Shown in pieces: positions 60,204 through 61,705 of a stretch of DNA of 64,000 nucleotides. The first letter of the stretch is position 1. Each line of letters opens with the position of its first letter. The position numbers were made by a program, and so were the translations under genes. The notes beneath the pieces were generated by a model that was not told the origin of the DNA, ran no database searches, and saw only the letters and a list, made by a program, of their open reading frames with translations. Source of the DNA: Gloeomargarita lithophora Alchichica-D10. Lineage in GTDB: Bacteria; Cyanobacteriota; Cyanobacteriia; Gloeomargaritales; Gloeomargaritaceae. The stretch is from assembly GCF_001870225.1 (NCBI RefSeq), contig NZ_CP017675.1:895660-959659 (forward strand), given 5' to 3'.

Positions 60204-60475
60204 ATTGGCAATTATTAGGTTTGACGTTTATAACGGTTTTTCTCTCTGAAATTGGGGATAAAAGCCAGTTGGCGACCATCGCCCTCAGTGGGAGTTCCTC
60301 TGCGCCTCGGTGGGTATTTTGGGGGACGGCAAGTGCCTTAATTATGGCTAGTTTTTTGGGGGTATTTTTGGGGGAACGATTGACAGAATTTTTACCCTTA
60401 AATACTCTGAAATTTATTGCCGCCGGGGGATTTTTGGGGTTGGGTATTCGTAGTTTGTGGCCGAAAAAGTCCTAA
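60200..60475 (+). CDS. hmx2: Hemi manganese exchanger 2-type half transporter (GDT1/UPF0016 family)
   Basis: 91 residues from ATG 60200 (MNWQLLGLTFITVFLSEIGDKSQLATIAL), overlapping the hmx1 stop by four bases. Three helices and the second EIGDKSQ motif, then SASFLGVFLGERLTEFLP-type second-half sequence. Must pair with the first half to form the six-helix exchanger. Confidence 0.85.
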   Translation: MNWQLLGLTFITVFLSEIGDKSQLATIALSGSSSAPRWVFWGTASALIMASFLGVFLGERLTEFLPLNTLKFIAAGGFLGLGIRSLWPKKS

Positions 60476-60482
60476 TGGGTGT

Positions 60483-60525
60483 ACCTAAAAATAGGTCGCC
60501 GGGGCACTGCCAAATCTCTGGTTCA
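60483..60525. repeat. Partial dispersed repeat
   Basis: ACCTAAAAATAGGTCGCCGGGGCACTGCC followed by GGTTCA corresponds to the left half of the element at 9338-9445. Confidence 0.55.
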
Positions 60526-60741
60526 ATGAGATAAATTATTTCGATTGCTTATCAATTAGTTTAAGATCATATCTATCCGTTGCAAAAATGTATTGAATCA
60601 ATCGCCCCAAATTAGAATCAGGAGCCGCTCCACGGACAATCAATGCACATATAACTAGAAAAACGCTGAAAGCTAAAGAAGATACAAAACCTTGCCAGAT
60701 AATAACCCAAAAACCCACGGATATTTTTTGGATACCAGATA

Positions 60742-60838
60742 TAGCAATATGACACGATTTACGAACAGAAATTCCACAGAACCAAGGGCGGGGGCGGTGC
60801 CCCTGCGACCGCTATTCTAAACCCAATTAGGATTGCTA
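60742..60838. mobile_element. 97-bp miniature element with TAGCAAT ends
   Basis: Inverted ends TAGCAAT / ATTGCTA, TA on both sides (60740-60741, 60839-60840). The interior holds CAGAAATTCCACAGAACCAAGGGCGGGGGCGGTGCCCCTGCGACCGCT-type palindromic core common to the dispersed repeats. Inserted in the 60536-61293 gene. Confidence 0.88.
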
Positions 60839-61072
60839 TAGTATCTCTTGTTTGTCTTCTGAAAAATTGTTTCGTAGAACTTTGAGTTGTTCTGATAAAA
60901 CTTTATCTTTATACTCATCAATTTTGCTTTCTAATTGAGCCTCAGCATATGATCCTGCAAATTGATAGAGTTGATTTTCTGCATTTTCTTTCAAACCTTT
61001 GAGACGACGCTCAGAAAATGTTTGCAAAAAGACATTGATTTCTTCATCAGTTCTTATAGGATTTTGCTGATA

Positions 61073-61168
61073 TAGCTAAGTAGGGTAAGGTTGTCGCCGC
61101 AAGATGCTGGGGAACCCGTGGGCTGCGCCCTGCGACCCATATTATGTCAACCTTTGCGTGTTTAGCTA
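61073..61168. mobile_element. 96-bp miniature element with TAGCTAA ends
   Basis: Imperfect inverted ends of about 23 bases (TAGCTAAGTAGGGTAAGGTTG against TAGCTAAACACGCAAAGGTTG on the other strand), flanked by TA (61071-61072, 61169-61170). Interior GGGGAACCCGTGGGCTGCGCCCTGCGACC resembles the other copies. Inserted in the 60536-61293 gene. Confidence 0.88.
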
Positions 61169-61299
61169 TACCATTCATATTTTTCTAGTTTATAATTTGC
61201 ATAAGCAAGCATTCCAACAACTCTTTCAAAAGAATCTTCCTGTTCTTGAAGAACTAATTTTTCAAAGATAGGATTATATTTGATTTCAGACATGAAGAT

Positions 61300-61433
61300 A
61301 CCTCTATAAATTGAAAATCAGTGGTCGCAAGGGGTTACTCCCCGCCCCAAAAGCACCTGCGGTGTATGGTTCTCCAGAATCTCTGCCTGCCAGCAGTGGG
61401 ATTTTCTGTTGGTTCAAATAAACAGAGGTGTCC
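61300..61433. repeat. Dispersed repeat with ACCTCTA / AGAGGT ends
   Basis: Left ACCTCTATAAATTGAAAATC and right AAACAGAGGTGTCC form an inverted pair around a palindromic GGTCGCAAGGGG...CCCC core read on the other strand. It lies just upstream of the start codon of the broken gene at 61293. Confidence 0.65.
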
Positions 61434-61467
61434 ATAAGAATTTAATCTGTTTGATTTTGAGTCCTTT

Positions 61468-61617
61468 TCAACCTTCGTTTTGGAAGCTAGACCTATCTGA
61501 CAATGCTTTTTCCATAGCTTCTTTAACTATCCTCGTATTGACAGCTACAATATCAGTACCAACTTTTACCCAGCGAATCTCAGATTTTTGCTCGAAACCA
61601 ATGTGCTTCCTTGGCAT
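61468..61617 (-). CDS. Small hypothetical protein
   Basis: 49 residues (MPRKHIGFEQKSEIRWVKVG, TDIVAVNTRIVKEAMEKALSD). AT-rich like the broken gene downstream on the same strand, so the two may have arrived together and formed a two-gene unit before the repeat at 61300-61433 separated them. No recognised family; coding status rests on composition and ORF integrity only. Confidence 0.4.
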   Translation of the reverse strand: MPRKHIGFEQKSEIRWVKVGTDIVAVNTRIVKEAMEKALSDRSSFQNEG

Positions 61618-61705
61618 AGAAATAACCTTTTATCCAAGACCATTGTTTTTAATATATCCTGCCGTGGGAGACTCTGTTCCCCTTGAAGTTTAATGAATTT
61701 ACAAC

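What the first reader, a model, noticed from the sequence alone, without database searches (positions are those of the whole stretch)
60536..61293. One gene broken twice by two related TA-flanked miniature elements, both excisable in silico to restore the frame
Two elements of 97 and 96 bp with TAGC-type inverted ends sit in the same gene. Each is flanked by TA. Removing each with one TA joins the three coding pieces in one frame (YEWYQQNPIRT and EILSGIQKIS) and yields a 186-residue protein with a single C-terminal membrane helix. Two hits in one small gene suggest either a preferred target or relaxed selection after the first insertion. Both insertions (98 and 99 bp added) introduce in-frame stops. 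The uninterrupted protein is not a family I recognise.
Basis: seen in the sequence. Interest (0 to 1): 0.72.

Follow-up and report, generated by a model that had tools for sequence, protein, structure and literature searches.

The report
Gene broken twice by miniature transposons
A small membrane-protein gene, apparently acquired from elsewhere by a Gloeomargarita-type cyanobacterium, has been broken by two tiny non-coding transposons of kinds present in about a hundred copies in the same genome; this is well supported but is an ordinary kind of gene decay.

Summary
On the minus strand, removing 60740-60838 (element A, 97 bp plus one TA) and 61071-61168 (element B, 96 bp plus one TA) joins three pieces into one 186-residue frame. 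A profile built only from three alphaproteobacterial plasmid proteins scores the joined protein at 55.5 bits, against 34.4, 12.2 and 9.6 for the pieces and at most 4.8 for shuffles, so this was one gene. No relative was found in other cyanobacteria sampled; six congeners lack it at the same place, and its G+C is 32% against 52%, which points to horizontal acquisition. A and B are two MITE families: 109 perfect-ended copies here, none in the control. B's two different ends match both ends of IS630-family elements, one with an intact transposase frame, in sister species; one end of A matches other IS630 elements. This genome has only three IS630 loci. The same MITEs interrupt Cas3, LysR, GST, GGDEF and DNA-methylase genes here, and close neighbours are commoner than random, so two hits in a dispensable gene need no special target. 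Nothing supports reversible excision. New member of a known kind; low-to-moderate interest.

The parts
61169..61293 (-). first coding piece, from ATG at 61293 (about 42 residues; conserved YNPIFEKLV...GMLAYANYKLEKYEW motif)
   Evidence: 34.4 bits alone against a profile of plasmid relatives; frame
61071..61170 (-). MITE B with both flanking TA (element proper 61073-61168, 96 bp)
   Evidence: 100% identical to two other copies, at least 40 diverged ones; ends match IS630 elements of sister species at 20-22 of 24 bases
60841..61070 (-). middle coding piece (about 76 residues)
   Evidence: 12.2 bits alone; raises the first piece from 34.4 to 46.8 bits
60740..60840 (-). MITE A with both flanking TA (element proper 60742-60838, 97 bp)
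   Evidence: 100% identical to six other copies, many diverged ones; one end matches IS630 elements at up to 21 of 24 bases
60536..60739 (-). last coding piece, with the membrane helix and the stop codon
   Evidence: 9.6 bits alone; joined protein 55.5 bits; hydropathy
61297..61437 (.). third repeat (C), directly upstream of the start codon; its end appears to carry the AGAGG that would serve as ribosome-binding site
   Evidence: matches at many other places in the genome; ends compared by eye

Best explanation
A small AT-rich gene of plasmid/phage type, coding a 186-residue protein with one C-terminal membrane helix, was acquired by this Gloeomargarita lineage between a UPF0016 (TMEM165/GDT1-type) gene and psbB. 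It was then inactivated by two separate insertions of IS630-type MITEs, A and B, each landing at a TA and duplicating it. The transposases that moved them were probably of IS630-family elements like those still present in sister species; this genome keeps only three IS630 loci. The gene is now a pseudogene giving at most short fragments. Shown: frame restoration, homology across the joins, copy number and ends of the MITEs, absence of the gene in congeners. Inferred: horizontal acquisition, the cut-and-paste mechanism, loss of function, and which transposases did it.
For: Joined frame. Plasmid relatives cover all three pieces; profile without the query gives 55.5 bits joined against 34.4, 12.2 and 9.6 for the pieces and at most 4.8 for shuffles; phrog_22648 spans the first join. 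109 perfect-ended MITEs in the genome, control 0. IS630 partners with matching ends. No gene at the same place in six congeners, none in 386 cyanobacterial genomes, G+C 32% against 52%.
Against: No genome with an empty site was found, so the TA duplication is read from the flanks only. The other end of A agrees with known IS630 ends only in its first nine bases. At the first join the protein is about five residues shorter than its relatives, so some host bases may have been lost there. Expression was not tested.
Confidence: 0.93

Rival explanations
1. The insertions act as a reversible switch: the elements excise precisely with one TA in some cells and restore the gene.
For: The frame is restored by exact excision at both places and both copies are identical to others, so they are young.
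Against: The same follows from simple insertion. ISY100, of the same family, cuts two bases inside the 5' ends (PMC2170065), so repair would tend to leave extra bases. Only three IS630 loci remain here, and two exact excisions would be needed.
Confidence: 0.03
2. The three pieces are not one gene; the common frame is a coincidence.
For: Two joins restore a common frame by chance about one time in nine.
Against: All three pieces match one protein family in order, each adds score, and no shuffle comes close.
Confidence: 0.02
3. The gene offers a preferred target for these MITEs rather than simply tolerating them.
For: Two different families inserted within about 330 bp; the gene is AT-rich, which offers many TA sites.
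Against: Other close pairs occur: six within 331 bp against 1.35 expected at random, with no common host gene; recognisable genes of ordinary composition are also hit.
Confidence: 0.1

Closest known systems
IS630-derived MITEs (Tc1/mariner superfamily)
   Same: About 100 bp, no coding capacity, inverted ends, TA on both sides, many near-identical copies, ends shared with full-length IS630 elements of sister species
   Different: No partner with B's ends was found in this genome; A has one end that agrees with known IS ends only over nine bases
MITEs that make pseudogenes in Anabaena sp. 90 (PMC3542288)
   Same: About 150 small elements in one cyanobacterial genome, some of them inside reading frames
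   Different: Other elements; there no matching IS ends were found in the genome, here partners are seen in sister species; here one gene is hit twice
Uncharacterised plasmid proteins (Polymorphobacter, Methylobacterium, Skermanella) and phrog_22648
   Same: N-terminal YNPIFEKLV...GMxAYxxYKxxKxEW motif and C-terminal membrane helix
   Different: Only about 25-30% identical; function unknown; no other cyanobacterial member among those searched

Membership tests
MITE | Short element without coding capacity and with inverted ends | tested here: met
   97 and 96 bp; nine-base perfect inverted ends with the TA
MITE | Many copies in the genome | tested here: met
   109 perfect-ended elements, control 0
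IS630-derived MITE | TA target duplicated on insertion | tested here: inconclusive
   TA on both sides in nearly all copies read, but no empty site in another genome to prove duplication
IS630-derived MITE | Ends shared with a full-length IS630 element | tested here: met
   B: both ends, 20-22 of 24 bases, L126 and L148; A: one end, 20-21 of 24 bases, L146 and L151
IS630-derived MITE | Moved by that transposase | not testable with these tools
   needs a transposition assay
phrog_22648 / plasmid membrane-protein family | Significant profile match over most of the protein | tested here: met
   E 4.3e-5 over residues 4-122; 55.5 bits with a plasmid-only profile over residues 4-157

The most novel reading that the evidence does not exclude
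The GC-rich core (GGTCGCAGGG...CACCGCCCC...TTGGTTC) seen in A, B and repeat C, in a full-length IS630 element and as stand-alone repeats in sister species is a separate mobile or selected unit that has been swapped between MITEs moved by different transposases, that is, modular MITEs.
Probability: 0.25. Interest if true: 0.5.

Novelty: new member of a known kind. Interest (0 to 1): 0.25.

Why it matters
It gives a clean record of recent MITE activity in Gloeomargarita, the cyanobacterial lineage thought nearest to plastids (general knowledge), with likely transposase sources identified in sister species. It also warns that gene calls in these genomes are broken in places by about a hundred small elements, and adds one cyanobacterial member to an uncharacterised plasmid/phage membrane-protein family.

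Tried and rejected
Pfam, NCBIfam and PADLOC gave no family for the joined protein. Searches of 386 cyanobacterial genomes with protein and profile found no other member; one weak hit (L099, E 0.007, within a 1215-residue frame) was dismissed. Scans of genome contigs and viral contigs and tblastn in phages found none. Rfam gave nothing at 60400-61700. The DNA hairpin of A is not more stable than shuffles (z -0.7); that of B is somewhat (z -2.3). Structure prediction was not run, since the joined protein is not encoded letter for letter.

Full report
What is there. The minus strand between 61293 and 60536 holds three coding pieces separated by two elements of 97 and 96 bp. As it stands, both elements bring in-frame stops.

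Was it one gene? Frame restoration at two joins happens by chance about once in nine, so it needed an outside test. tblastn with the joined protein found a Polymorphobacter plasmid protein (E 9e-7, 85% of the query, 25.5% identity) and weaker matches on Methylobacterium and Skermanella plasmids. Aligned, these share an N-terminal motif (YNPIFEKLV...GMxAYxxYKxxKxEW) and a C-terminal membrane segment. A profile made from these three proteins only, without the query, gives 55.5 bits for the joined protein, 34.4, 12.2 and 9.6 for the pieces, and at most 4.8 for shuffles. phrog_22648 matches residues 4-122, across the first join. None of the relatives contains the inserted stretches. At the first join the cyanobacterial protein is about five residues shorter than the relatives; this is left open.

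Origin of the gene. No other member was found in 58 relatives including six of the same genus, or in 386 cyanobacterial genomes by protein or profile. In all six congeners the order carotenoid oxygenase, UPF0016 pair, psbB is kept, and the spacer where this gene lies is only 49-516 bp and does not hold the gene. The coding pieces have 32% G+C against 52% for the window, below every frame of 150 residues or more in it. Horizontal acquisition is the natural reading, though not proved.

The elements. A has six other identical copies in the genome and many diverged ones; B has two identical others and at least 40 diverged ones. A pattern with both nine-base ends finds 109 elements in this genome and 121 in a sister species, with none in the reversed-pattern control. 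The sister, G002, has the contig length of Gloeomargaritales cyanobacterium VI4D9; the window's genome is probably Gloeomargarita lithophora, judging by its size from memory. Both families are abundant in G002 and G004, A also in G005, and they are nearly absent from the other congeners.

Which transposase. This genome has three clear IS630-family loci. In G002 and G004, IS630 elements of about 0.93-1.06 kb have two different ends, TATAGCTAAGCAGGCAAAGGTTGG and TATAGTCAAGCAGGGTAAGGTCGT or near variants. B's two different ends match them at 20-22 of 24 bases, and one such element (L126) has an uninterrupted 300-residue transposase frame over the family's cut-off. One end of A matches other IS630 elements (L146, L151; 20-21 of 24), and L151 shares a further 21 identical bases at the same distance from the end; A's other end agrees only in the first nine bases or so. 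ISY100 of Synechocystis, of the same family, inserts at TA and duplicates it (PMC2170065).

Why two hits? The same families interrupt other recognisable genes here. In four the junction falls inside a domain: Cas3, a LysR regulator, a DNA methylase and a glutathione S-transferase; in a GGDEF protein it falls upstream of the domain. Excising 60 copies gave junction-crossing frames of at least 90 residues at 23, against 13 with the frame set off by one or two. Six neighbouring pairs lie within 331 bp against 1.35 expected at random, three of them in one tandem array. Two hits in an accessory gene are therefore unremarkable, and relaxed selection after the first hit is enough.

Excision. That the frame is restored reflects the past state. 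ISY100 transposase cuts two bases inside the 5' ends, so simple repair of an excision site would be expected to leave extra bases. No excised form was available to test.

Known kind. Cyanobacterial MITEs that make pseudogenes are known: 147 MITEs, 15 of them in disrupted frames, in Anabaena sp. 90 (PMC3542288), and MITE-inactivated genes are reviewed in PMC10969869. This case is a new member of that kind.

Noticed in passing
60742-60838, 61073-61168, 61297-61437; L151 (IS630 element); spacers in L090 and L091: A GC-rich core (GGTCGCAGGG...CACCGCCCC...TTGGTTC) is shared by repeats with different ends, by a full-length IS630 element at the same offset, and occurs alone in the UPF0016-psbB spacers of sister species.
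   Followed up: partly
61297-61437; also L064 and L098: A third repeat with GGAYACCTCTRTTTATTTGAACC-like ends sits directly upstream of the broken gene's ATG and, elsewhere, of another gene's ATG, where its end would supply the AGAGG ribosome-binding site.
   Followed up: partly
G000:C1:2479473-2479864 (L011): Four A-type copies lie head to tail every 97 bp, each sharing TATA with the next, as if elements inserted into each other's end.
   Followed up: no
L013 around 1501-1602 (G000:C1:1406867): An A-type MITE interrupts a cas3 helicase gene inside its C-terminal domain, so a CRISPR system here may be inactive.
   Followed up: partly
L007 and L063 (G000:C1:1313627-1313861): A B-type and an A-type element lie 14 bp apart, and the 14-bp stretch gcatcgaattcacc is repeated on the other side of the A-type element, longer than a TA duplication.
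   Followed up: no
L097 1842-2992 (G000:C1:2156841-2157991): A 1151-bp IS630 element with TATAGCAATCCTA ends has its transposase split over two overlapping frames near a long run of T; either decayed or frameshifted.
   Followed up: no
A-type copies L004-L033: Most A-type copies have a C just outside the TA at the TAGCAATCC end but varied bases at the other end, hinting at an orientation-dependent target preference.
   Followed up: no
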